Shown: one piece after another, positions 6,874 to 37,575 of the stretch
Layout: every line of letters starts with the position of its first letter
Numbering within the stretch: position 1 is the first letter of the stretch
Translations under genes and position numbers: made by a program
Assembly (NCBI GenBank): GCA_900315785.1
Contig: ONAL01000011.1
Span: 1 to 59,051 of the forward strand
Source of the DNA: an uncultured Eubacteriales bacterium
GTDB lineage: Bacteria; Bacillota; Clostridia; Oscillospirales; Acutalibacteraceae
Direction of reading: 5' to 3'
DNA: 59,051 bases
The notes under the pieces: generated by a model
Databases searched by the model: none
Seen by the model: the letters and a program-made list of their open reading frames with translations, nothing else
Told to the model about the DNA's origin: nothing

Positions 6874-6890
6874 TAAGTCAATAAATAATT

Positions 6891-6919
6891 AAGACCGTCG
6901 CGAAAGCGGCGGTCTTTTT
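6891..6919. terminator. Intrinsic terminator after the pullulanase pair
   Basis: An 11-bp stem (AAGACCGTCGC / GCGGCGGTCTT, one T-G pair) with a GAAA loop is followed by TTTTTC on the plus strand. Confidence 0.9.
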
Positions 6920-6939
6920 CGTCATAAGTTATATAGTTT

Positions 6940-7317
6940 TTATTCAAAGTCTCCGTAGAAATCAAATTCCTCAAAGCAGTCTGTGAGCAGGTCTGCCGCT
7001 TCGTCTCTGATTTCCGAATCGTCCTTGCCGTGGTCAAGCTCAGCGAGAAACAGGTTGATACTGCCGAACAAATCTGTGAAAAGAATCTCCGTGATATCTT
7101 CCTTTGTGAGCTCGGGGTTTGAGTCGTAGAGAACCTTTGCGGTCTGGAGCGTGATGTACTGGAGCGTGCTCTCGATTGACTCGAGCTCTGCTTCCTCACA
7201 GCTCATACCCGCGTTAATCTCACCGTTTGCGTCGCAGTGACCGTACAAAAACAGCTCGCCTGCGCCAAGCTGAGTATTCTCTATTTCCTTGATTTTCTTG
7301 GTTATGTTCGAAGCCAT
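6940..7317 (-). CDS. Hypothetical acidic protein
   Basis: A 125-residue protein, not recognised. The start at 7317 is backed by an AAAGGAGAG ribosome-binding site. It is rich in Glu and Asp, especially in the C-terminal third, is predicted mostly helical, has no membrane segment or signal peptide, and has two isolated Cys (about 29 and 40) plus one near the end. It stands alone between the pullulanase terminator and the pckA promoter region, on the opposite strand to both. Could be a small cytosolic helical protein; no function is proposed. Confidence 0.7.
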   Translation of the reverse strand: MASNITKKIKEIENTQLGAGELFLYGHCDANGEINAGMSCEEAELESIESTLQYITLQTAKVLYDSNPELTKEDITEILFTDLFGSINLFLAELDHGKDDSEIRDEAADLLTDCFEEFDFYGDFE

Positions 7318-7515
7318 AAAAACTCTCCTTTGGTTGTGATGTACTTATTTTACCGTATTTGAGGCGGATTGTAAAGGTACAATAATTGATTATTGTTTAT
7401 CATCTGAGTTCTGAATATTTCGGTTTATATATTCATCAAAAACTGACGGTTAATTGTTATTTATTTGGCTATTTCATTGATTTTTGCAGGAGAGGTAAAA
7501 ATCTTTGTCATTTAC

Positions 7516-7544
7516 TTGACTTTGCGGCTCTAAAATATTAAAAT
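7516..7544 (+). promoter_or_regulatory. Sigma-A type promoter of pckA
   Basis: TTGACT (7516-7521), a 17-base spacer, then TAAAAT (7539-7544). The predicted transcript start near 7551 leaves about 50 bases of leader before the ATG at 7602. The region 7318-7515 upstream is AT-rich and holds nothing else I can identify. Confidence 0.75.
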
Positions 7545-7601
7545 ATAAGGGTAATTATGACTAACCCCAAAAAGGTAATTTTTCATAAAGGAGTAGATAT
7601 T

Positions 7602-9293
7602 ATGTCCACAAAGGCTAACTACAAAACCGAAGAAATCGGAACAGGCAAAATTGGTTTTTCCAAGACCCGTTCCATTATCGAGACAGCTTTCTACGGCAAC
7701 AACGTTGTTCCCGTAAACACTCTTAAAGAGGCATATAACCTCGCTAAGAATTCTCCCGGAACAATCGTTACCGACCTTCCCGTATACAGAGGTGAGGAGT
7801 TCGGTCTTGACCGCGACGCTAAGGTGCTTCTCTTCAACGACGGCGCCGTTACAGGCCGTTACGCTGCTGCACGCCGTATCAAGGGCGAGCCCGGCGTTGA
7901 CGATGTAAAGCTCGACAAGGTTGTTATGGACGCTGTTTATAAGACACGTTTTAAGAAAATGTACCACGCTACCGTATTCGTAGGTCTTGACCCCGAGTTT
8001 ATGGTAAAGGCTCACCTTCTCATTCCCGAGGGTGAAGAGAACCTTATGTACTCCTGGATGCTCAACTTCCAGTATATGTCCGACGAGTACGTTAAGATGT
8101 ATAAAAACTCAAAGGCAGTAGGCGACGGCAAGGAAGCTGATATCTATATTCTCTCCGACCCCCAGTGGGCTCCTGTTGAGTCTCCCGACGTTGACTACAG
8201 CTGTCTGAGCGACCCGCTCACACTCTGCTACTTCGATACAAACGAGAACTGCGCTGCAATCCTCGGTATGAAGTACTTCGGCGAGCACAAGAAGGGCACT
8301 CTGACAATGGCTTGGGCTATCGCTAACCGCAACGGTTATGCTTCCTGCCACGGCGGTCAGAAGGAGTACTTACTCGACGACGGCTCCAAGTTCGTTGCTT
8401 CCGTATACGGACTTTCGGGTTCGGGTAAATCCACACTTACACACGCTAAGCACGGCGGCAAGTACGAGATTAAGGTTCTCCACGACGACGCTTTCATCAT
8501 CAATACAGATACATGCGCTTCAATTGCGCTTGAGCCCACATACTTCGACAAGACTGCCGACTATCCCGCAGGCTGCCCCGATAACAAGTATCTCCTTACT
8601 TGCCAGAACTGCGGCGCAACTCTCGACGAGGACGGCAAGGTTCAGCTCGTAACCGAGGATATCCGTAACGGCAACGGCCGTGCAATTAAGTCCAAGCTCT
8701 GGTCTCCGAACCGCGTTGACAAGATTGACGCTCCCGTAAACGCTATCTTCTGGATTATGAAGGATCCTACAATTCCTCCCGTTGTCAAGCTCAAGGGCGC
8801 TTCTCTTGCTTCCGTAATGGGCGCAACTCTCGCGACTAAGACATCAACAGCGGAGCGTGTTGCGGCTGGCACAGACCTCAACGCTCTGCGTATCGTACCT
8901 TATGCTAACCCGTTCAGAACCTATCCGCTCAAGAACGACTATGTTAAGTTCAAGAAGCTCGTTGAGGAGAAGAACGTTGACTGCTACATCATCAACACAG
9001 GCGACTTCATGGGCAAGAAGGTTAAGCCCGCCGATACTCTCGGAATCCTCGAGGCTATCGTTGAGAAGAGAGCTGAGTTCAAGAAGTGGGGTCCGTTCTC
9101 CGATATCGAGATTATGGATTGGGAAGGCTTTGACGTAGATATGAACGACAAGGACTACGTTGAGGCTCTCAAGAACGCTATGCAGAACCGCGTTAACGCT
9201 ATCGAAGGCTTCGCAGTAAATAAGGAAGGCTATGACAAGCTTCCCGACGAGGCATTAGAGGCTGTTAAGAAGGTTGTAGCTGAGCTCAACTAA
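7602..9293 (+). CDS. pckA: Phosphoenolpyruvate carboxykinase (ATP)
   Basis: Interconverts oxaloacetate and PEP plus CO2 using ATP/ADP; in fermenting anaerobes it often runs in the CO2-fixing direction toward oxaloacetate. The start at 7602 is preferred because AAAGGAG lies 10 bases upstream, while the in-frame ATG at 7557 sits almost on the predicted transcription start. The 563-residue product carries the kinase-1a P-loop GLSGSGKSTLTHAKH and the downstream HDDAF acidic site, plus the C-terminal ALRIVPYANPFRTYPL stretch seen in clostridial members. It is transcribed alone between its own promoter and a terminator. Codon use is of the highly expressed type. Confident family call. Confidence 0.92.
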   Translation: MSTKANYKTEEIGTGKIGFSKTRSIIETAFYGNNVVPVNTLKEAYNLAKNSPGTIVTDLPVYRGEEFGLDRDAKVLLFNDGAVTGRYAAARRIKGEPGVDDVKLDKVVMDAVYKTRFKKMYHATVFVGLDPEFMVKAHLLIPEGEENLMYSWMLNFQYMSDEYVKMYKNSKAVGDGKEADIYILSDPQWAPVESPDVDYSCLSDPLTLCYFDTNENCAAILGMKYFGEHKKGTLTMAWAIANRNGYASCHGGQKEYLLDDGSKFVASVYGLSGSGKSTLTHAKHGGKYEIKVLHDDAFIINTDTCASIALEPTYFDKTADYPAGCPDNKYLLTCQNCGATLDEDGKVQLVTEDIRNGNGRAIKSKLWSPNRVDKIDAPVNAIFWIMKDPTIPPVVKLKGASLASVMGATLATKTSTAERVAAGTDLNALRIVPYANPFRTYPLKNDYVKFKKLVEEKNVDCYIINTGDFMGKKVKPADTLGILEAIVEKRAEFKKWGPFSDIEIMDWEGFDVDMNDKDYVEALKNAMQNRVNAIEGFAVNKEGYDKLPDEALEAVKKVVAELN

Positions 9294-9303
9294 GTATAAA
9301 ACT

Positions 9304-9332
9304 AAGGACTGACGCGAGTCAGTCCTTTTTTT
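9304..9332. terminator. Intrinsic terminator of pckA / envelope operon
   Basis: A perfect 10-bp stem (AAGGACTGAC / GTCAGTCCTT) with a GCGA loop, followed by seven T on the plus strand; it lies between the convergent pckA and licD-family genes. Confidence 0.92.
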
Positions 9333-9347
9333 ATGTGTATTAGTTTT

Positions 9348-10193
9348 TTAAATTGCGGGTTTGTTCAAATCAAGCTTTGCCAAGTCGTGGCTGATAACGC
9401 GCTCGCTCTCGGGCGGCGGCGTCATATAATCCTCGCCGAACGCAAGTCTGAGATAACCGTCGTAGCCGTTCATAGCCTTGAACTTTTCACCCTCAAACTC
9501 AATATCGACCGTGCTCTCAAAGAACTCCTTGGGATATTCGTTCTTCATAATCCTCGGACCAGCGCAGAGCTCGCATACGAGGTTGCAGTCGTCGAGACTG
9601 TAGCTTGTCATACGCCTTTCGGCGAACTTCCAGATTTTCTTGCGGCGTTTGTAGCTTCGGAAGATTCCGAGCAGAATCTTGCTTCCGAGCGCCATAATTC
9701 CGCCGTGCTTCTCGGGAACCGTCTGAGCTCTGAAAAGCGAGTAGATTATGCACCAGAAAAATTGCAGATACTTCTGGCTTTTCTTTGTCGGTCTCGCGTC
9801 AATGGGGAAGATGTCGAACGCGACGCCGTGCGGAATATTCAAATCCTTCTGATAATTCTTAACAAGCGTTACGCTTGTGTCGACCAGAGTCGCAAAGCAG
9901 TTGCGCGTGAAGGTTTCGTCGGTTTCGTTCAGGAGCAGAAAACGCTCTGACGGGTTTTCCTCGAGATATGTCTTTATGAAAATCTCATAATCCGCCCTCG
10001 GCATAAACACGTCGGCGTCATCGTCCCAGGGAATGAACTTTCCGTAGCGGAGCGCGCCTATAAGACATCCGCCGCACAAATAGTACGTGATGTCGTGTTT
10101 GTCGCAGAAATCGCGGAAATATCTGAGCAAATCGAGCTCCTTGAGCTGAAGGGCTCTCAGCTCTTTGCCTGTCAGTGAGATAATCTCGGACAT
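9348..10193 (-). CDS. LicD family phosphotransferase
   Basis: LicD proteins are nucleotidyltransferase-fold enzymes that transfer phosphocholine or similar phospho-groups to teichoic acids and other surface glycans. The 281-residue product has the family hallmarks near the N-terminus: LCGGCLIGALRYGKFIPWDDDADV, shown here in its key pieces GGCLIGA and PWDDDAD (metal-binding acids), followed by the RADYEIF motif. It is the last gene of a five-gene minus-strand operon and starts two bases after the glycosyltransferase stop, which suggests it modifies the glycan that the glycosyltransferase helps to build. The substrate is not known. No signal peptide; cytosolic. Confidence 0.85.
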   Translation of the reverse strand: MSEIISLTGKELRALQLKELDLLRYFRDFCDKHDITYYLCGGCLIGALRYGKFIPWDDDADVFMPRADYEIFIKTYLEENPSERFLLLNETDETFTRNCFATLVDTSVTLVKNYQKDLNIPHGVAFDIFPIDARPTKKSQKYLQFFWCIIYSLFRAQTVPEKHGGIMALGSKILLGIFRSYKRRKKIWKFAERRMTSYSLDDCNLVCELCAGPRIMKNEYPKEFFESTVDIEFEGEKFKAMNGYDGYLRLAFGEDYMTPPPESERVISHDLAKLDLNKPAI

Positions 10194-10195
10194 AG

Positions 10196-11233
10196 TTAAC
10201 CTCTGTCAGTGTTTTTTTCTTCTTCCTTTGCTTTTTTGAGCTTGTGTTTCCAGAACGGAATTTGCAGAATTCCCACAATCGTACCCATTCCGTAAGCAAG
10301 GTGCATAATGGGGAACAGGAGAGGAAGCAGGAAGAACTGCGGTCTGATGTCGCGCATTGTAAAGCAGCTTACCGTGTTAACGAAGTCGAACATCGAATAG
10401 AGCAAGAGCAGAATTTCGATAAAGAGCGGGAAGCCAAGCAGCGCGAGCACCGATGTTACCATTAGAGCTCCGACGAAAAGGAACGGAACAAAGTGGTAAT
10501 AGGAAAGGCACTTGGGAGCTACCGAGAGCGTAAGTCCAATCCATCTGCCATTGCCGAACTTCTGCTTAATCATACCCTTGAGCGAGTTTCTGGTATGCTG
10601 ATACGATATGATTTCGGGGTTAAAGCAGATTCTGAAGCCTGCCTTTTTCATTCTATAGTGAACCTCGTTGTCTTCGGTTCTGGTCAAATCCTCGTTAAAG
10701 AATCCGATTTTGTCAAATACCTCACGTCTGTACGCGCCGTGGAAGAGCGAGTTTACGTAGGTTTTGCCCTGCTGACGGCGGTACGGAGCTATGGAGCTTC
10801 CGAACATAGAGGTCTCAACCAGGAGCAAGGTTTCCTTCCACGCGGTCGGCTCGTCGATGATGTTAGGTCTGAAACCGCCGCAGATGTTCTCGCCGTCCTC
10901 GAGCGTCTTGACGTTCTTTGCGATGAAGTCGGACGGAATGGAAGCGTGTGCGTCAATTCTGACCACCGCGTCGCCGCTGTAGTTGTTAAGCACGACGTTC
11001 CAGCCGCAGGGCTGGGTTTTCTTGGGGTTTGAGAGAACCTTTACGTCGTAAAAGTCCTGAGCGTTATTCTTTCTGAACGTCTCCATAATAACCTTTGTGT
11101 TATCTGTGGAGTTGCTGTCTACAAGAATAACCTCAATTTTTTTATGGTCATACGTCTGTTTACAAATATCCTTCAGTAACGAGCCCAGAGAGTTTTTCTC
11201 GTTATAGGCTATTACGCCGATTGTAATTATCAT
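10196..11233 (-). CDS. Family 2 glycosyltransferase with C-terminal membrane segments
   Basis: 345 residues. The GT-A fold N-terminus shows TIGVIAYNEKNSLGSLL and the nucleotide-sugar region VILVDSNSTDNT; VVRIDAHASIP carries the likely DxD-type metal site (DAH). From about residue 235 there are several hydrophobic helices (LSYYHFVPFLFVGALMV; LLFPIMHLAYGMGTIVGIL), as in GT2 enzymes that elongate exopolysaccharide or cell-wall glycans at the membrane. The ATG overlaps the preceding gene's stop by four bases, so translation is coupled. Acceptor and donor are unknown. Confidence 0.87.
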   Translation of the reverse strand: MIITIGVIAYNEKNSLGSLLKDICKQTYDHKKIEVILVDSNSTDNTKVIMETFRKNNAQDFYDVKVLSNPKKTQPCGWNVVLNNYSGDAVVRIDAHASIPSDFIAKNVKTLEDGENICGGFRPNIIDEPTAWKETLLLVETSMFGSSIAPYRRQQGKTYVNSLFHGAYRREVFDKIGFFNEDLTRTEDNEVHYRMKKAGFRICFNPEIISYQHTRNSLKGMIKQKFGNGRWIGLTLSVAPKCLSYYHFVPFLFVGALMVTSVLALLGFPLFIEILLLLYSMFDFVNTVSCFTMRDIRPQFFLLPLLFPIMHLAYGMGTIVGILQIPFWKHKLKKAKEEEKNTDRG

Positions 11234-30060: not shown

Positions 30061-30786
30061 TTGGAAATATTCAGCAAAAGCGACGTAGGCTTAGTCCGCA
30101 CCCAGAATCAGGACGACTGCCGTTTCGGAGTTATTTCCCCAAGCTGCGCGTGGGCAGTAGTATGTGACGGAATGGGAGGAGCCAACGGCGGCAACATTGC
30201 CTCAGCCTCGGCGGTTGAGTACATCAGCCGTGAGATTGAGAAGATGTATTCCGACACGCTCTCCAAGCCCGAGCTCGCTACACTTATGACCGAGATTGTC
30301 TCACAGGCGAATAAGGCTATTTTCGATTTGTCTCAGAATGATGTTGAGTTGACGGGAATGGGCACGACATGCGAGTTTGTTCTTATCAAGGATACGACGG
30401 TTCACGTTGTTCACGTCGGCGACAGCCGCACCTACGCTATCAGAGGCGGCAAGATAAAGCAGCTCACCGAGGACCATTCCGTGGTTCAGGAAATGGTTCG
30501 CCGCGGAGAGATTACCTCCGAGCAGGCTCAGACGCATCCCAACAAGAACTTTATCACCAGAGCCCTCGGCATAAAGCCCGACGTTCACCTAGACTATATC
30601 GAGACCAACTTCATCTACGGCGATGTGCTTCTGGTTTGCACCGACGGCTTCTCAAACTGCGTTTCCACAGGCGATATGGTTAAGCTCTGCCACGAAAACC
30701 GCGGCGAGGGTCTGACCGACAAACTTGTTGACAAGGCAAAGGACGGCGGCGGTACCGACAACATTACCGTAGTCGTTATCTATTGA
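30061..30786 (+). CDS. prpC: PP2C-type Ser/Thr phosphatase (Stp/PrpC)
   Basis: 241 residues starting with TTG at 30061, set by an AAGGAGG eight bases upstream. PPM-family motifs: DVGLVRTQNQDDC, VVCDGMGGANGG (metal Asp), GMGTTCEFVLI, HVGDSRTY, LTEDHS, CTDGFSNC and GGTDNITVVV. It reverses phosphorylation by the PASTA kinase encoded immediately downstream (14-base gap), the standard pairing in Gram-positive bacteria. Confidence 0.95.
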   Translation: MEIFSKSDVGLVRTQNQDDCRFGVISPSCAWAVVCDGMGGANGGNIASASAVEYISREIEKMYSDTLSKPELATLMTEIVSQANKAIFDLSQNDVELTGMGTTCEFVLIKDTTVHVVHVGDSRTYAIRGGKIKQLTEDHSVVQEMVRRGEITSEQAQTHPNKNFITRALGIKPDVHLDYIETNFIYGDVLLVCTDGFSNCVSTGDMVKLCHENRGEGLTDKLVDKAKDGGGTDNITVVVIY

Positions 30787-30800
30787 CGGAGGTGAGTTAA

Positions 30801-32882
30801 ATGGATAAATACAGCGGAAAAAAGCTTGACGGACGCTACGAAATCCACGAGCTCATCGGCGTCGGCGGAATGGCGTACGTTTATCGCTGCACAGACACGC
30901 TCGACGACCGCGAGGTCGCGGTAAAAATCCTCAAGGACGAGTTCTTAAACAACGAGGAATTTATCAGAAGATTCAAGAACGAGAGCAAGGCAATCGCTAT
31001 GCTCTCTCACCCCAATATTGTAAAGGTATATGACGTAAGCTTCGGCGATATGATTCAGTATATCGTAATGGAGTATATCGACGGAATTACACTCAAGGAG
31101 TACATCGGTCAGCAGGGAGTTCTCGATTGGAGAGAGGCTCTGCACCTCACCACCCAGATTCTCAAGGCGCTCCAGCACGCTCACAACAAGGGCGTAGTTC
31201 ACCGTGATATCAAGCCGCATAACATTATGCTTTTGCAGGACGGCACAATCAAGGTGACCGACTTCGGTATCGCGCGCCTTACCGATAACCACACCAAGAC
31301 AATGACCGAGCAGGCTATCGGCTCTGTTCATTATATTGCTCCCGAGCAGGCTCGCGGCAGCTCCACCGACGGCAAGTCGGACATCTACTCCGTAGGCGTT
31401 ATGCTCTACGAGATGATTACGGGCAAGCTTCCGTTCGACGCGGACAGCGCCGTTTCCGTAGCTCTTATGCAGCTCCAGTCCACGCCAGTTATGCCGCGTG
31501 AGATTAACCCGGGAATTCCGCTCGGACTTGAGCAGATTACAATGCACGCAATGCAGAAGAATCCCTCCGAGCGTTACCAGACAGCTCTCGATATGCTCGG
31601 CGACCTCGAGAGATTCAGACTTAACCCCAACGTCCATTTTGACTACAAGTACTTTGTTGACCAGGAGCCGACAAAGTTTGTCAGCAAAAAGACGAAGAAG
31701 CCCGAGCCCAAGCCCGAACCCGAGAAGAAAAAGAAGAAGGGCGAGGCTGAGGAGCTCGCGACCAAGAAGGAACGCTCCACGGTGTTCCACGCTGTCAAGG
31801 CTTCAATCATCGCGGCGGCGATTATCATCATTGTTTTCCTTTCCGCTTCGCTCATAAAGGGCTTTATGTCAGCTCAGGCGACGGACGTAGAGGTTCCCGA
31901 CTTCAAGGGAATGACGATTGTCGAAGCGAACGAGAACAACCCCAACAACTTCAAGTTTGAGATAAAGAGCAGTCCCAAGTTCGACAAGAACAAGGAGACA
32001 GGCGAAATCATCAAGCAAGACCCCGAAGCAGGCTCAAAGCTTGTCAAGACAGGCTCCACAATTGAGCTTACAATCAACTCCGAGGACGTTGACGCGACTG
32101 TTCCGTTCTGTAAGAACCTCAGCCGCAAGGAAGCTTTGAAGCTTATCCGCTCAAAGTCTCTCACACCCACGGTTGTCGACGTTTACGACAGCCTCGGCGC
32201 TACCGACGCGGTTGTGGATACGTTCCCGCCCGCAGGCGTCAAGACCACAGTCGGCTCGCCCGTATATGTTTATATTGTTCGCGGAACCTACAAGGAAAAG
32301 ATTCAGGTTCCCAACGTAACCGATATGACTCTTGATACGGCACAGGGAGCGCTCAACGAGAAGAAGCTCGAGTGCAAGTACACCTACGATGACGAGAGCC
32401 TCGCTCCCGAGGGTACGGTTATCGGTCAGTCGCCGCTCCAGTATTCCAAGGTTGACGACGGCACAATCGTAAACCTCATCGTAAGCTCGGGTAAGGGCAG
32501 CCAGAGCACGGTTAATATCACCGTCGATATGCCCACAAACGTTGATTATGACGTTAATATGACGGTATCAATTGACGGCGTTGTGGATTCGTCCTACTCA
32601 AAGAAAATTAACCCCAAGTACAACTCAAGCTACGCTATGTCCTTCACAGGCAGCGGCAGCGCTACTGTACTGGTTATGCTTGACGGTCAGAATTACCGCA
32701 AGTATGAGATAGACTACGCCACGGGCAACTACAAATCCACATCCTATGCATTTGTCCCGACTGAACCCGAAACCACCCAGCCGACGGAGGCTCCGACCTC
32801 GGAATCCGAGCCCGTAACGGAGCCTGAGAGCGAATCGGTATCAGAGGAAGCGTCGGAGGAAAATCTGGATGAATTTGCTTAA
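30801..32882 (+). CDS. prkC: PASTA-domain Ser/Thr protein kinase (PrkC/PknB)
   Basis: 693 residues. Cytosolic kinase domain with intact catalytic residues: GVGGMAYVY, K42 (VAVK), HRDIKPHN with D136, DFG with D154, and the APE motif. Transmembrane helix about 334-353. Outside: three PASTA domains (about 362-432, 433-502, 503-568), which sense muropeptides or lipid II, then a further beta-rich domain and an acidic Pro/Thr/Glu/Ser-rich tail (651-693). Controls wall growth and other processes. The gene after thiN encodes a related protein with a dead kinase domain. Overlaps rsgA by 14 bases. Confidence 0.96.
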   Translation: MDKYSGKKLDGRYEIHELIGVGGMAYVYRCTDTLDDREVAVKILKDEFLNNEEFIRRFKNESKAIAMLSHPNIVKVYDVSFGDMIQYIVMEYIDGITLKEYIGQQGVLDWREALHLTTQILKALQHAHNKGVVHRDIKPHNIMLLQDGTIKVTDFGIARLTDNHTKTMTEQAIGSVHYIAPEQARGSSTDGKSDIYSVGVMLYEMITGKLPFDADSAVSVALMQLQSTPVMPREINPGIPLGLEQITMHAMQKNPSERYQTALDMLGDLERFRLNPNVHFDYKYFVDQEPTKFVSKKTKKPEPKPEPEKKKKKGEAEELATKKERSTVFHAVKASIIAAAIIIIVFLSASLIKGFMSAQATDVEVPDFKGMTIVEANENNPNNFKFEIKSSPKFDKNKETGEIIKQDPEAGSKLVKTGSTIELTINSEDVDATVPFCKNLSRKEALKLIRSKSLTPTVVDVYDSLGATDAVVDTFPPAGVKTTVGSPVYVYIVRGTYKEKIQVPNVTDMTLDTAQGALNEKKLECKYTYDDESLAPEGTVIGQSPLQYSKVDDGTIVNLIVSSGKGSQSTVNITVDMPTNVDYDVNMTVSIDGVVDSSYSKKINPKYNSSYAMSFTGSGSATVLVMLDGQNYRKYEIDYATGNYKSTSYAFVPTEPETTQPTEAPTSESEPVTEPESESVSEEASEENLDEFA

Positions 32883-34433: not shown

Positions 34434-34461
34434 TTGTCTTTAACAAAACTGTAACTATAAT
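34434..34461 (+). promoter_or_regulatory. Candidate promoter P1 of the pseudokinase gene
   Basis: TTGTCT (34434-34439), 16-base spacer, TATAAT (34456-34461). Confidence 0.55.
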
Positions 34462-34475
34462 AACAGCGGCATTTA

Positions 34476-34505
34476 TTGAAATTTAAATATCAGCTGTGAT
34501 ATACT
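34476..34505 (+). promoter_or_regulatory. Candidate promoter P2 of the pseudokinase gene
   Basis: TTGAAA (34476-34481), 18-base spacer, TATACT (34500-34505), about 38 bases upstream of the start codon at 34544. Together with P1 this shows that the gene can be transcribed separately from the prkC operon. Confidence 0.55.
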
Positions 34506-34543
34506 TAATATGATGTGATTTTATAAATAACAGGAGGCAACAA

Positions 34544-36172
34544 ATGGCTTTATGTATGGGTTGTATGCGGGAAATCGGAGACAATGTAATTTGCCCGAGC
34601 TGCCGCTTTGATAATTCCAACGAACAGCATTCTCCGTTTTTACCGTATGGTACAGTCCTTCACGGACGTTATATAGTAGGCTCAGTAATTGATACTAACG
34701 GCGAAAGCTCGCGCTATATCGCTTTTGATAAGCAGACGGGCGACGTTGTTATCGTGTGCGAGTTCCTTCCGATGGGACTTTTCGAGAGAGAGAACGACGA
34801 GACAAACCTCACCGTAAGGTTCGAGAACGACGAGGTTTTCCGCAAGCTCACTCAGGATTTTATTTCCTACTTCCGCACAATTGCGGAGCTCAAGGATTTT
34901 TCAGCCTTAATCCGTATTCATAACATTTTTCAGGAGAACAACACCGCGTACGTTATCGAGGAAAATCAGGATTTGATTCCCTTCGAGGAGTATGTCGAGA
35001 GAAGCAACGGCTCGCTTGAGTGGGATATCGCAAGACCGCTCTTTATGCCCGTTATCTCTGCTCTCGAGGCTCTTCACCGCAGAGGTCTCGGTCATTACGC
35101 TATTTCTCCCAAGAATATGTACGTAACAGCCTACGGAAAAATCAAAATCGCGGGCTTTGCTACCTCAAACGAGCGCAAGAGAGGAACTCCCCTCAAGTCT
35201 CAGCTCTATTCGGGCTGTGCCGCTCCCGAGCAGTATGAAAACAACTTTCCGCTCGATACCATTACCGAGATTTACGGCTTTTCCGCAACTCTGTTCTATG
35301 CCTTAACAGGTCATCTGCCCGCTCCCGCGAAGGACCGTCTCAAGGACAGCAGACTCCTTATGAGCACCAGCACAGTCAAGAGACTTCCGCCTCACGTCGT
35401 TACCGCGATTGCGAACGGCTTACAGGTTAAGCGTGAGAACCGTATCACGGACTTTGACGCGCTGAGAAGCCAGCTTTCGGTTTCACACACAGCTCAGGCG
35501 ATTCAGGAGGAAATCTCCAGAACAGCCAATATGAATATGAAGAAGTCCGATATCAAGAAGGCTAAGGGCGGTTCTCAGAAGCTCATCGTCTTTGCCGCGG
35601 CAATCCTTACCACGCTTATCATCGGCGGTCTGGGACTGTTTATCTTCTTCCAGAATCCGTTCCAGAATCTTTTCCGTCATCAGAACGAGGCGACTACCAC
35701 AGCGCCCACGGAGAAGTGGACAGGACCGACGGTTCCCGATTATGTCGGCAAAACCTACGAGGAAGCCGAAGCCGACGCGGAGCACGACGACAACCTCACC
35801 ATTTACCGTGATACCAAGGAGGTTTACTCCAACGATTACGCCGAGGGCGTTATCACCGAGCAGTATCCCGCTGCGGGCTCGCCGCTTACCGCTTCGGGTG
35901 AGTATTCGATTTCCGTCAAGGTCAGCAAGGGCGCGCAGATGCGTAAGCTCCCCGACGTGGATAACAAGAGCGTTAACGCAGCCGCAAAGGCGCTTGCGAA
36001 CAAGGGCTTCGTTGTTAATGCCGAGTATCAGCACAGCACTACGGTTGACGAGGGCGATGTAATCGGCTACAAGGAGTACAAGGCGGGCGATATGCTCGAG
36101 CACGGCTCCACCGTCACGATTATAGTGAGCAAGGGAACCGAACCCACGAAAGCACAGACCTCAAATAACTAA
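34544..36172 (+). CDS. Zinc-ribbon / pseudokinase / transmembrane / PASTA protein
   Basis: 542 residues, AGGAGG site. Order: zinc ribbon (C4, C7, C17, C20), kinase-like domain (about 36-310), transmembrane helix (347-369), two PASTA domains (395-463 and 466-532). The kinase fold is recognisable (LYSGCAAPEQY; IYGFSATLFYALTG) and resembles zinc-ribbon kinases of Clostridia. However, the ATP Lys is Cys (C72 in VVIVCEFLP), HRD has become HYA (184-186, in GHYAISPKN), DFG has become AGF (203-205), and the Gly loop is DTNGESS. By family knowledge this should be unable to transfer phosphate. The outside looks like PrkC's sensor. It follows the prkC operon but has its own promoters. Possibly an allosteric partner or decoy of PrkC; that is inference. 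Confidence 0.88.
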   Translation: MALCMGCMREIGDNVICPSCRFDNSNEQHSPFLPYGTVLHGRYIVGSVIDTNGESSRYIAFDKQTGDVVIVCEFLPMGLFERENDETNLTVRFENDEVFRKLTQDFISYFRTIAELKDFSALIRIHNIFQENNTAYVIEENQDLIPFEEYVERSNGSLEWDIARPLFMPVISALEALHRRGLGHYAISPKNMYVTAYGKIKIAGFATSNERKRGTPLKSQLYSGCAAPEQYENNFPLDTITEIYGFSATLFYALTGHLPAPAKDRLKDSRLLMSTSTVKRLPPHVVTAIANGLQVKRENRITDFDALRSQLSVSHTAQAIQEEISRTANMNMKKSDIKKAKGGSQKLIVFAAAILTTLIIGGLGLFIFFQNPFQNLFRHQNEATTTAPTEKWTGPTVPDYVGKTYEEAEADAEHDDNLTIYRDTKEVYSNDYAEGVITEQYPAAGSPLTASGEYSISVKVSKGAQMRKLPDVDNKSVNAAAKALANKGFVVNAEYQHSTTVDEGDVIGYKEYKAGDMLEHGSTVTIIVSKGTEPTKAQTSNN

Positions 36173-36180
36173 AATAAAGA

Positions 36181-36208
36181 AAGACCGCAAACGCGGTCTT
36201 TTCCTTTT
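36181..36208. terminator. Bidirectional intrinsic terminator
   Basis: AAGACCGC and GCGGTCTT (8-bp perfect stem) with an AAAC loop, T-rich on both strands; between the pseudokinase and the convergent XRE gene. Confidence 0.88.
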
Positions 36209-36232: not shown

Positions 36233-36886
36233 TTAAGATATTCTATGGTTCTGGATAATTGTTTTTTCGGCGTTCTTGATAAGCTCGTTGAGCGCAGGGA
36301 AGCTTTCGCCGTAATCCTGAGAAAGACTGTCGACAGACAGGCTCATACCCTCCAGATTCTGTGACGCTTCCTTGATTCTCGCGTCGGTAACGCTGAGCGT
36401 CGCGGCGCAGTAATTATCCGAAAAAGGAGAGGTGACGCGGAAGATATCCGCAGGGTTATTTTCTTTTATAGAATAAATCTTTCTGAACATATTATACTCG
36501 GCGACGAAAAGGTAATCGCTGACGTGCTTTGTCAGCTTCTTGTTGTTGATTTTCGACAGCAGACTGTAGATAACCGCCGCGGAGTTGACCGCCAGACGAC
36601 GGTTGAGAAGGCACTGGGTGTTGCTCCTCGCGATTTCCGCGTCGGAGTAATCGTCCTCGGTCAGCGTTTCGCTTGCGGCTTCCGAGCTTCTGCCGAGAAG
36701 ATAGTCGGTGCTGACCTCGTAATAGTCGGCGAGCCTGACAATGAACTCAAGCCCGCATTCGCGGATTCCCTTTTCGTAATGGGAGAGCAGAGCCTGACTG
36801 ATTCCGAGCTCCGCCGCCGCGTCCTTCTGGCTCAGACCGCGCTTTTTTCTGAGGGCTGTTATCGTTCTGCCGAGTTGTTTTTTCAT
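36233..36886 (-). CDS. XRE-family transcriptional regulator
   Basis: 217 residues from the ATG at 36886, eight bases after AGGTGG; an in-frame GTG four codons upstream lies inside that site and is rejected. N-terminal helix-turn-helix (about 3-60): LRKKRGLSQKDAAAELGISQ then ALLSHYEKGIRECGLEF, ending STDYLLGRS. The remaining 150 residues are helical and match no family I know; they may bind a ligand. Its promoter overlaps a 15-bp palindrome, so it may regulate itself and the divergent phosphatase gene. Confidence 0.88.
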   Translation of the reverse strand: MKKQLGRTITALRKKRGLSQKDAAAELGISQALLSHYEKGIRECGLEFIVRLADYYEVSTDYLLGRSSEAASETLTEDDYSDAEIARSNTQCLLNRRLAVNSAAVIYSLLSKINNKKLTKHVSDYLFVAEYNMFRKIYSIKENNPADIFRVTSPFSDNYCAATLSVTDARIKEASQNLEGMSLSVDSLSQDYGESFPALNELIKNAEKTIIQNHRIS

Positions 36887-36915
36887 AATGCACACCACCT
36901 GATTATATTACAATC

Positions 36916-36957: not shown

Positions 36958-37575
36958 ATGCAGTCATATGTAATTCATTTTCTACGTCACGGCGCAATCG
37001 CCGACACCCTCAAGGGCAAGTATATCGGCAAAACCGACGTGCCCCTCAGCGAAGAGGGCAGAGCGCTGCTTAGAAAGTACGACGCGGAGTATATTTATCC
37101 GGGCGCTGCCGTGCTTTTCACCAGTCCGCTCAAGCGCTGTGTCGAGACGGCAAATATAATCTATCCTGACTTAAAGCCCATCGTAATCGACCAGCTCGCG
37201 GAGTGCGACTTCGGCGACTGGGAGGGCAAGACAGCCGACGAGCTCAAGGATAACCCCGATTTCCAGAAATGGCTTGCGGGCGAGAAGGGCTCAAAGCCCA
37301 CGAACGGCGAAAGCGGCTCTGAATTTGCCGAGAGGATTTGTCTTGTGTTCGAGCAGATTGTCGACGGACTTATGAAAACAGGCAACAACGAGGCGATTAT
37401 AATAACCCACGGCGGCGTTATTATGACGCTCTTGTCCGTTTACGGATTGCCGAGGGCAAAGTCGTTTGAATGGGTAATGGACAACGGCTTCGGCTATTCC
37501 GCCAGAATCACACCTATGCTCTGGTCAAGGGACAAGGTTATGGAGGTTTACCGCAAAATCCCCGTTACCGAATAA
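36958..37575 (+). CDS. Histidine phosphatase family protein (CobC/phosphoglycerate mutase-like)
   Basis: 205 residues. The phospho-His motif is LRHGAIA (first catalytic Arg-His), followed by SPLKRCVETA (Arg), ECDFGDWEG (acid Glu) and ITHGGVI (second His). This pattern fits alpha-ribazole phosphatase (CobC) and general small-molecule phosphatases; no cobalamin genes are nearby, so the substrate stays open. Divergent from the XRE regulator. Confidence 0.87.
   Translation: MQSYVIHFLRHGAIADTLKGKYIGKTDVPLSEEGRALLRKYDAEYIYPGAAVLFTSPLKRCVETANIIYPDLKPIVIDQLAECDFGDWEGKTADELKDNPDFQKWLAGEKGSKPTNGESGSEFAERICLVFEQIVDGLMKTGNNEAIIITHGGVIMTLLSVYGLPRAKSFEWVMDNGFGYSARITPMLWSRDKVMEVYRKIPVTE

What the first reader, a model, noticed from the sequence alone, without database searches (positions are those of the whole stretch)
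34544..36172. Membrane PASTA protein with a dead kinase domain beside the PrkC-Stp locus
The kinase fold is kept (APE motif, C-lobe) but all three catalytic positions have changed: ATP Lys to Cys (C72), HRD to HYA (184-186), DFG to AGF (203-205), and the Gly loop is lost. Yet the zinc ribbon, transmembrane helix and two PASTA domains remain, there are two candidate promoters, and the reading frame is intact, so this is unlikely to be a decaying gene. A PASTA pseudokinase next to an active PASTA kinase and its phosphatase suggests a wall-sensing regulator that binds PrkC or shares its ligand without phosphorylating.
Basis: partly seen in the sequence, partly recalled or inferred. Interest (0 to 1): 0.72.

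Follow-up and report, generated by a model that had tools for sequence, protein, structure and literature searches.

The report
Conserved dead PASTA-type membrane kinase
A membrane protein built like a cell-wall-sensing kinase has lost its catalytic parts, yet about nine in ten sampled genomes of its bacterial family keep it, so it probably works as a non-enzymatic partner in cell-wall signalling.

Summary
Window 34544-36172 (+) encodes a 542-aa protein: zinc ribbon, protein-kinase fold, one membrane helix, two PASTA domains. This is not local decay. In 152 distinct relatives the HRD Asp is absent in 151 of 151 rows with the site. Matches at E<=1e-40 occur in 266 of 300 family genomes. dN/dS of the dead domain (0.03, 13 pairs) equals that of the PrkC kinase domain (0.03, 37 pairs). 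It is not a PrkC duplicate: it descends from zinc-ribbon kinases (KEYxP/HRDISPDN), and the 41 dead sequences tested form one clade (UFBoot 97). The argument from the PrkC-Stp neighbourhood is weak: PrkC lies upstream in 31 of 37 near loci but 0 of 83 more distant ones. Best mechanism: a PASTA receptor acting by binding, probably a scaffold or modulator of PrkC, the only other Pkinase match in this genome (inferred). Ten paper searches found no PASTA pseudokinase family.

The parts
34544..36172 (+). PASTA pseudokinase gene, 542 aa
   Evidence: intact ORF; Pfam Pkinase and 2 PASTA
34532..34537 (+). ribosome-binding site AGGAGG
   Evidence: read from sequence
34434..34505 (+). two sigma-70-like promoter matches (34434-34461, 34476-34505)
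   Evidence: consensus scan, not proof
34553..34603 (+). zinc ribbon, Cys 4, 7, 17, 20
   Evidence: four Cys in 151 of 151 rows with the site
34670..35497 (+). pseudokinase domain, about residues 43-318
   Evidence: Pfam 105-302, PpkA alignment
34757..34759 (+). Cys72 in place of the ATP Lys
35093..35101 (+). H184-Y185-A186 in place of HRD
   Evidence: HRD Asp absent in 151 of 151
35153..35161 (+). G204-F205-A206 in place of DFG (corrected register)
35222..35230 (+). A227-P228-E229, kept APE-type motif
   Evidence: E229 in 151 of 151 rows with the site
35582..35638 (+). transmembrane helix, residues 347-365
   Evidence: hydropathy
35729..35929 (+). PASTA domain 1 (predicted outside the cell)
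   Evidence: PF03793, 48.8 bits
35945..36133 (+). PASTA domain 2
   Evidence: PF03793, 42.9 bits
36179..36202 (+). terminator-like hairpin after the gene
   Evidence: 10-pair stem and T-rich tail
30801..32882 (+). PrkC, PASTA kinase with K, HRD and DFG intact, three PASTA
30061..30786 (+). Stp, PP2C-type phosphatase
   Evidence: PF13672, 67 bits
36233..36898 (-). XRE-type regulator, tail to tail with the pseudokinase gene
   Evidence: PF01381; neighbour in 29/41 near, 14/17 intermediate and 5/70 distant loci

Best explanation
A single-pass receptor pseudokinase. Two PASTA domains outside the cell read nascent peptidoglycan or a wall precursor (inferred from the domain). Inside, a kinase fold that cannot phosphorylate, and in the window's lineage probably cannot hold ATP in the usual way (inferred from the residues), acts by binding, with the zinc ribbon as a second contact. 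It descends from a zinc-ribbon kinase that lost catalysis once, before the families that carry the dead form split (supported by the tree). Most likely it modulates PrkC, the only other Hanks kinase found in this genome: it pairs with PrkC, serves as its docked substrate, or competes for the same ligand, and so sets PrkC output at the division or growth site (inferred, not shown).
For: Hallmarks present in 16 of 16 active zinc-ribbon kinases are lost or replaced in the 41 dead sequences compared: Gly loop, beta3 Lys (8 of 41 keep it), alphaC Glu (0 of 41), HRD Asp (0 of 41), DFG Asp (4 of 41 keep it). HRD Asp is absent in 151 of 151 family members. The 41 dead sequences form one clade, UFBoot 97 / SH-aLRT 89.5, joined to a clade of 12 active zinc-ribbon kinases with UFBoot 100. 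dN/dS is 0.03, equal to the PrkC kinase domain. PASTA and the kinase fold are found in 26 of 26 representatives, a linker membrane helix in 151 of 152. PrkC is the only other Pkinase match in the genome and is found in 283 of 300 family genomes. Partial precedent: the membrane kinase-like CD2148 of C. difficile, which lacks an Asp and an Asn whose spacing fits HRDxxxxN (my reading), is phosphorylated in vitro only with PrkC present, and its mutant shows more CwlA S136 phosphorylation; the authors suggest it may act on PrkC (PMC9674922, PMC8262956; passages).
Against: No interaction, ligand or phosphorylation was tested. The PrkC gene is not a neighbour outside the window's clade. PrkC is matched while the pseudokinase is not (no match at E<=1e-40) in 9 of 9 sampled genomes of the small-genome genera g34, g47 and g86, so PrkC does not need it. 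Co-occurrence with PrkC says little because PrkC is nearly universal. The PASTA domains of the two proteins are only distantly alike (10-19 identical residues per pair). The CD2148 precedent is mixed: S136 of CwlA was also higher in the prkC CD2148 double mutant, and many sites depend on CD2148.
Confidence: 0.48

Rival explanations
1. A wall-targeted scaffold independent of PrkC: PASTA domains bring the protein to sites of wall synthesis, and the dead kinase fold and zinc ribbon recruit cytoplasmic wall or division proteins.
For: PrkC within 5 kb upstream in 0 of 83 intermediate and distant loci; residues conserved in the dead clade but not in active relatives (W160, F167, R211) point to a selected surface; EssB/YukC is a membrane pseudokinase that works as a scaffold (PMC12599244 section 4).
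Against: PrkC is the only other kinase match in this genome; neighbour clustering found no partner gene shared by all clades.
Confidence: 0.28
2. A PrkC-phosphorylated adaptor read by a phosphothreonine (FHA) domain, as MviN-FhaA in mycobacteria; here the reader would be the FHA domain fused to a SEDS-type wall synthase elsewhere in the genome.
For: The genome's only FHA match is on an FHA-FtsW/RodA fusion; Thr or Ser at activation-segment position 215 in 114 of 152 rows (T 91, S 23); in 200 family genomes a hit reaching into the FHA part (query start 62 or less) occurs in 88 of 174 with and 6 of 26 without the pseudokinase, Fisher p 0.011 (lists typed).
Against: The association is not corrected for descent; the fusion was not found in 86 of 174 genomes that have the pseudokinase; some counted hits carry stops between FHA and synthase; no phosphosite is known.
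Confidence: 0.12
3. A non-canonical enzyme (for example glutamylation or AMPylation on a kinase fold).
For: SidJ and SelO show that kinase folds can be repurposed (PMC12599244 section 4).
Against: No new conserved acidic or basic residue at the old active-site positions; invariant E73 and near-invariant R82 are also present in active relatives and PpkA, so they are inherited. Gly loop, Lys and DFG Asp are gone together in the window's protein.
Confidence: 0.05
4. A decaying gene or sequencing artefact.
For: Some draft-genome relatives carry one stop codon inside the match.
Against: Open frames and the same HRD loss in more than 100 genomes; dN/dS 0.03.
Confidence: 0.01

Closest known systems
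PASTA Ser/Thr kinases PrkC / PknB / StkP (NCBIfam NF033483)
   Same: Single-pass membrane topology, kinase fold inside, PASTA outside; PASTA part matches solved PASTA-kinase ectodomains 3py9 and 3m9g (S. aureus PknB by recall) and PknB 2kui
   Different: Catalytically dead; zinc ribbon at the N terminus; kinase domain from another class; 123.4 bits against the model's cut-off of 450
Active zinc-ribbon kinases with KEYxP/HRDISPDN, some with PASTA (L283, L284)
   Same: Same ribbon, same kinase class, sister clade; three have 4-8 PASTA
   Different: All three catalytic residues intact; C-terminal parts vary (DUF5050, beta-helix, MORN, beta-lactamase fold); the PASTA-bearing active ones sit inside the active clade
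CD2148 of Clostridioides difficile
   Same: Second membrane kinase-like protein beside PrkC, lacks an Asp and Asn read here as those of HRDxxxxN, affects CwlA phosphorylation (PMC9674922, PMC8262956; passages)
   Different: No PASTA domain; membrane segment at the C terminus; sequence not compared here
MviN-FhaA of Mycobacterium tuberculosis
   Same: Pseudokinase in wall-synthesis control, acted on by FhaA after PknB transphosphorylation (PMC3989709 passage)
   Different: The pseudokinase domain is part of MviN, a flippase (recalled); no PASTA (recalled)
DYD pseudokinases
   Same: Membrane-associated, in Firmicutes, Lys-to-Arg and loss of alphaC Glu (PMC12599244 section 12)
   Different: DYD motif absent here; the review says DYD and DLHK keep HRD and/or DFG

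Membership tests
Bacterial Ser/Thr pseudokinase (general kind) | kinase fold lacking one or more of beta3 Lys, HRD Asp, DFG Asp | tested here: met
   all three lost in the window; HRD Asp lost in 151 of 151; Pfam Pkinase above cut-off
PASTA Ser/Thr kinase (PrkC/PknB, NF033483) | intact catalytic residues | tested here: not met
PASTA Ser/Thr kinase (PrkC/PknB, NF033483) | score over the curated NCBIfam cut-off | tested here: not met
   123.4 bits, cut-off 450
PASTA Ser/Thr kinase (PrkC/PknB, NF033483) | PASTA repeats after one membrane helix | tested here: met
   (topology predicted)
PASTA Ser/Thr kinase (PrkC/PknB, NF033483) | kinase domain in the PrkC clade | tested here: not met
   tree
Zinc-ribbon kinases with KEYxP/HRDISPDN | N-terminal CxxC...CxxC ribbon and E-[FY]-x-P...R signature | tested here: met
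   four Cys and E73 in 151 of 151; R82 99%, P76 98%
Zinc-ribbon kinases with KEYxP/HRDISPDN | K, HRD Asp, DFG Asp intact (16 of 16 active ones compared) | tested here: not met
DYD pseudokinases | DYD motif in place of DFG | tested here: not met
   GFA in the window; column 204 is Gly in 113 and Asn in 15 of 151
MviN-type phospho-adaptor | phosphorylated by the PASTA kinase and bound by an FHA domain | not testable with these tools
   one FHA protein exists
CD2148 orthologue | sequence orthology | not tested
   CD2148 sequence not obtained; it lacks PASTA by description

The most novel reading that the evidence does not exclude
These gut bacteria run a three-part wall-sensing relay: PASTA kinase PrkC, a PASTA pseudokinase that is its phosphorylated co-receptor, and an FHA domain fused directly to a SEDS-type wall synthase that reads the phosphorylated pseudokinase and switches synthesis on site.
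Probability: 0.1. Interest if true: 0.82.

Novelty: new variant of a known kind. Interest (0 to 1): 0.6.

Why it matters
PASTA kinases govern wall growth in Gram-positive bacteria and affect beta-lactam sensitivity (general knowledge), but how their output is tuned is poorly known. A PASTA receptor with a dead kinase fold, found in about nine tenths of the sampled genomes of a gut bacterial family (266 of 300) and with a dead domain as constrained as the live kinase domain of PrkC, makes non-catalytic control of that pathway directly testable in harmless isolates.

Tried and rejected
Local decay: rejected. A PrkC duplicate that died: rejected. PrkC neighbourhood as evidence of partnership: rejected as general evidence. 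'PASTA was gained together with loss of catalysis': held after (0 of 6 active zinc-ribbon kinases with PASTA), then dropped, which found three active zinc-ribbon kinases with PASTA, one in the window's own family. Conserved partner gene: clustering of neighbours gave an XRE regulator in one part of the family and a YebC-like gene in another, none in all. Literature: ten searches listed no paper on a PASTA pseudokinase family; only open-licence PMC papers are held, and I opened four papers (PMC12599244: outline, sections 4 part 1, 10 and 12, and passages; PMC9674922, PMC8262956, PMC3989709: passages). The sections of PMC12599244 on ActPs1-3, GLW and DLHK were not read; a word search of its text gave 0 for zinc, ribbon and clostridia.

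Limits of counts: the 152 sequences (window included) come from 29 short loci, 80 further regions picked by hand among the listed rows, and the 45 loci, after dropping copies of the window, duplicates and matches under 200 bits. Relatives below the listed rows were not read. One row (L084) is a fragment that lacks the N-terminal and catalytic sites, one (L075) is cut after residue 325, one (L055) has a gap over the APE site. The 266 of 300 is my count of E-values <=1e-40; its own tally at 1e-10 (289) probably includes PrkC cross-hits. The 94 FHA-type hits were picked by query start 62 or less. dN/dS uses few, non-independent pairs with dS between 0.1 and 1. Four active zinc-ribbon kinases (L283 1153-3129, L284 1193-3163, two of L295) fall outside the sister clade, so the class as a whole is not one clade.

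Full report
What is there. The frame at 34544-36172 (+) is intact and codes for 542 residues. Order of parts: CxxC...CxxC zinc ribbon (Cys 4, 7, 17, 20), protein-kinase fold (about 43-318; Pfam Pkinase 44.7 bits against a cut-off of 31.7), one hydrophobic helix (347-365), two PASTA domains. It has a ribosome site, promoter-like sites upstream and a terminator-like hairpin at 36179-36202. The genome held (1.67 Mb, 57 contigs, 91.5% complete) gives only two Pkinase matches: PrkC at 30801-32882 and this one. PASTA matches fall in three proteins: PrkC, this one, and a protein I take by recall for a penicillin-binding protein beside a MraY-like gene. The nearest named relatives (73-81% identical) are metagenome genomes labelled Ruminococcus sp., Clostridia or Oscillospiraceae.

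Catalytic residues. Compared with active relatives and with the solved kinase PpkA, the beta3 Lys is Cys72, the HRD Asp is Ala186, the DFG is Gly204-Phe205-Ala206, the alphaC Glu and the Gly loop are gone, and the APE-type Glu229 is kept.

Is it conserved? A search of 300 family genomes with the protein gave E<=1e-40 in 266 (my count). I aligned 152 distinct relatives, of which 151 have the sites. HRD Asp: 0 of 151 (Gly 93, Ala 57, Ser 1). Beta3 Lys: kept in 8 of 151 (Arg 88, Cys 35, His 14, Ala 3, Gln 3). DFG Asp: kept in 13 of 151. AlphaC Glu: 0 of 151. So loss of the catalytic base is fixed, while Lys and DFG Asp vary. In the sister family (f5) and one f159 genome, 13 sequences were compared: 5 keep Lys, 2 keep the DFG Asp, 0 the HRD Asp. 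Two sequences (L096, f5 L231) keep both Lys and DFG Asp without the HRD Asp. Over 13 close pairs the dead domain has median dN/dS 0.03, the same as the PrkC kinase domain over 37 pairs; the PASTA part is looser (0.147, 12 pairs, against 0.07, 13 pairs, for PrkC).

Origin. Active relatives nearest by sequence are zinc-ribbon kinases with KEYxP and HRDISPDN, not PrkC. In a tree of 72 kinase domains rooted on PrkC, all 41 dead sequences form one clade (UFBoot 97, SH-aLRT 89.5) whose sister is a clade of 12 active zinc-ribbon kinases (the two joined with UFBoot 100); four further active zinc-ribbon kinases fall outside it. All 31 active sequences in that alignment carry Lys, HRD Asp and DFG Asp. 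An earlier tree of 62 domains separated the pseudokinases from the active kinases with UFBoot 100. Three active zinc-ribbon kinases also carry PASTA, 8, 6 and 4 stretches (L283 3133-7185; L284 3160-6873 and 6881-11029), the first in a genome of the window's own family, but they sit inside the active clade. So PASTA was gained more than once or lost in other active members; the tree cannot tell.

Neighbourhood. stp, prkC, rsgA and a thiamin pyrophosphokinase gene (families checked) precede the gene in the window. PrkC lies within 5 kb upstream in 31 of 37 near loci that had 4.2 kb of upstream sequence, but in 0 of 16 intermediate and 0 of 67 distant loci. A convergent XRE regulator is a wider neighbour (29 of 41, 14 of 17, 5 of 70). 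In 29 of the 100 loci L085-L184 a YebC-like gene lies upstream (family of one checked).

Link with PrkC. Reasons for: shared PASTA ectodomains, PrkC as the only other kinase match of this genome, near-universal PrkC in the family (283 of 300 at E<=1e-60). Reasons against: in nine of nine sampled genomes of three small-genome genera (g34, g47, g86) PrkC is matched and the pseudokinase is not, and linkage is local. In C. [quoted passage not shown] its mutant shows more CwlA S136 phosphorylation, but so does the prkC CD2148 double mutant. The authors suggest that CD2148 may act on PrkC and do not exclude a pseudokinase (PMC9674922, PMC8262956; passages). It is the nearest working precedent I found, and a mixed one. 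Another is MviN-FhaA (PMC3989709 passage).

A lead. The only FHA match in the genome is on an FHA-FtsW/RodA fusion (L272 328-1998). In 200 family genomes, 138 match this protein at E<=1e-40 and 94 of these hits reach into the FHA part by my criterion: 88 of 174 genomes with and 6 of 26 without the pseudokinase (Fisher p 0.011, not corrected for descent). This makes a phospho-adaptor model testable but far from shown.

Shown: real gene, dead site, strong purifying selection, separate origin from PrkC, variable neighbourhood; supported by the tree: one ancient loss. Inferred: PASTA ligand binding, lack of ATP binding, action on PrkC. Novelty: bacterial pseudokinases and PASTA kinases are both known; no PASTA pseudokinase family was found in ten searches of open-licence PMC papers.

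Noticed in passing
L272:328-1998 (window genome contig C51): The genome's only FHA match is fused to an FtsW/RodA/SpoVE-type wall synthase; its FHA part resembles FhaB/FipA (NF049868, 53.6 bits, below the cut-off of 125).
   Followed up: partly
L283:3133-7185; L284:3160-6873 and 6881-11029: Active zinc-ribbon kinases of 1238-1383 codons with 4-8 PASTA stretches plus Ig-like, RCC1 or other repeats, encoded next to another active zinc-ribbon kinase.
   Followed up: partly
L193:610-2799; L189:1441-4035; L192:1471-3261; L188:1492-3570: Active zinc-ribbon kinases fused to a beta-lactamase-like fold, a beta-helix, MORN repeats or DUF5050: a modular receptor-kinase class.
   Followed up: no
window 36233-36898 (-): XRE regulator tail to tail with the pseudokinase gene, kept in many relatives even where PrkC is not near; a phosphatase/mutase-like gene (36958-37575, named by recall) follows it.
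   Followed up: partly
29 of the loci L085-L184, for example L104:8148-8918: In distant relatives a YebC/TACO1-like gene lies just upstream of the pseudokinase gene.
   Followed up: partly
L005:1477-3162: PASTA-bearing protein that looks like a penicillin-binding protein (recall) next to a MraY-like gene, the third PASTA protein of the genome.
   Followed up: no
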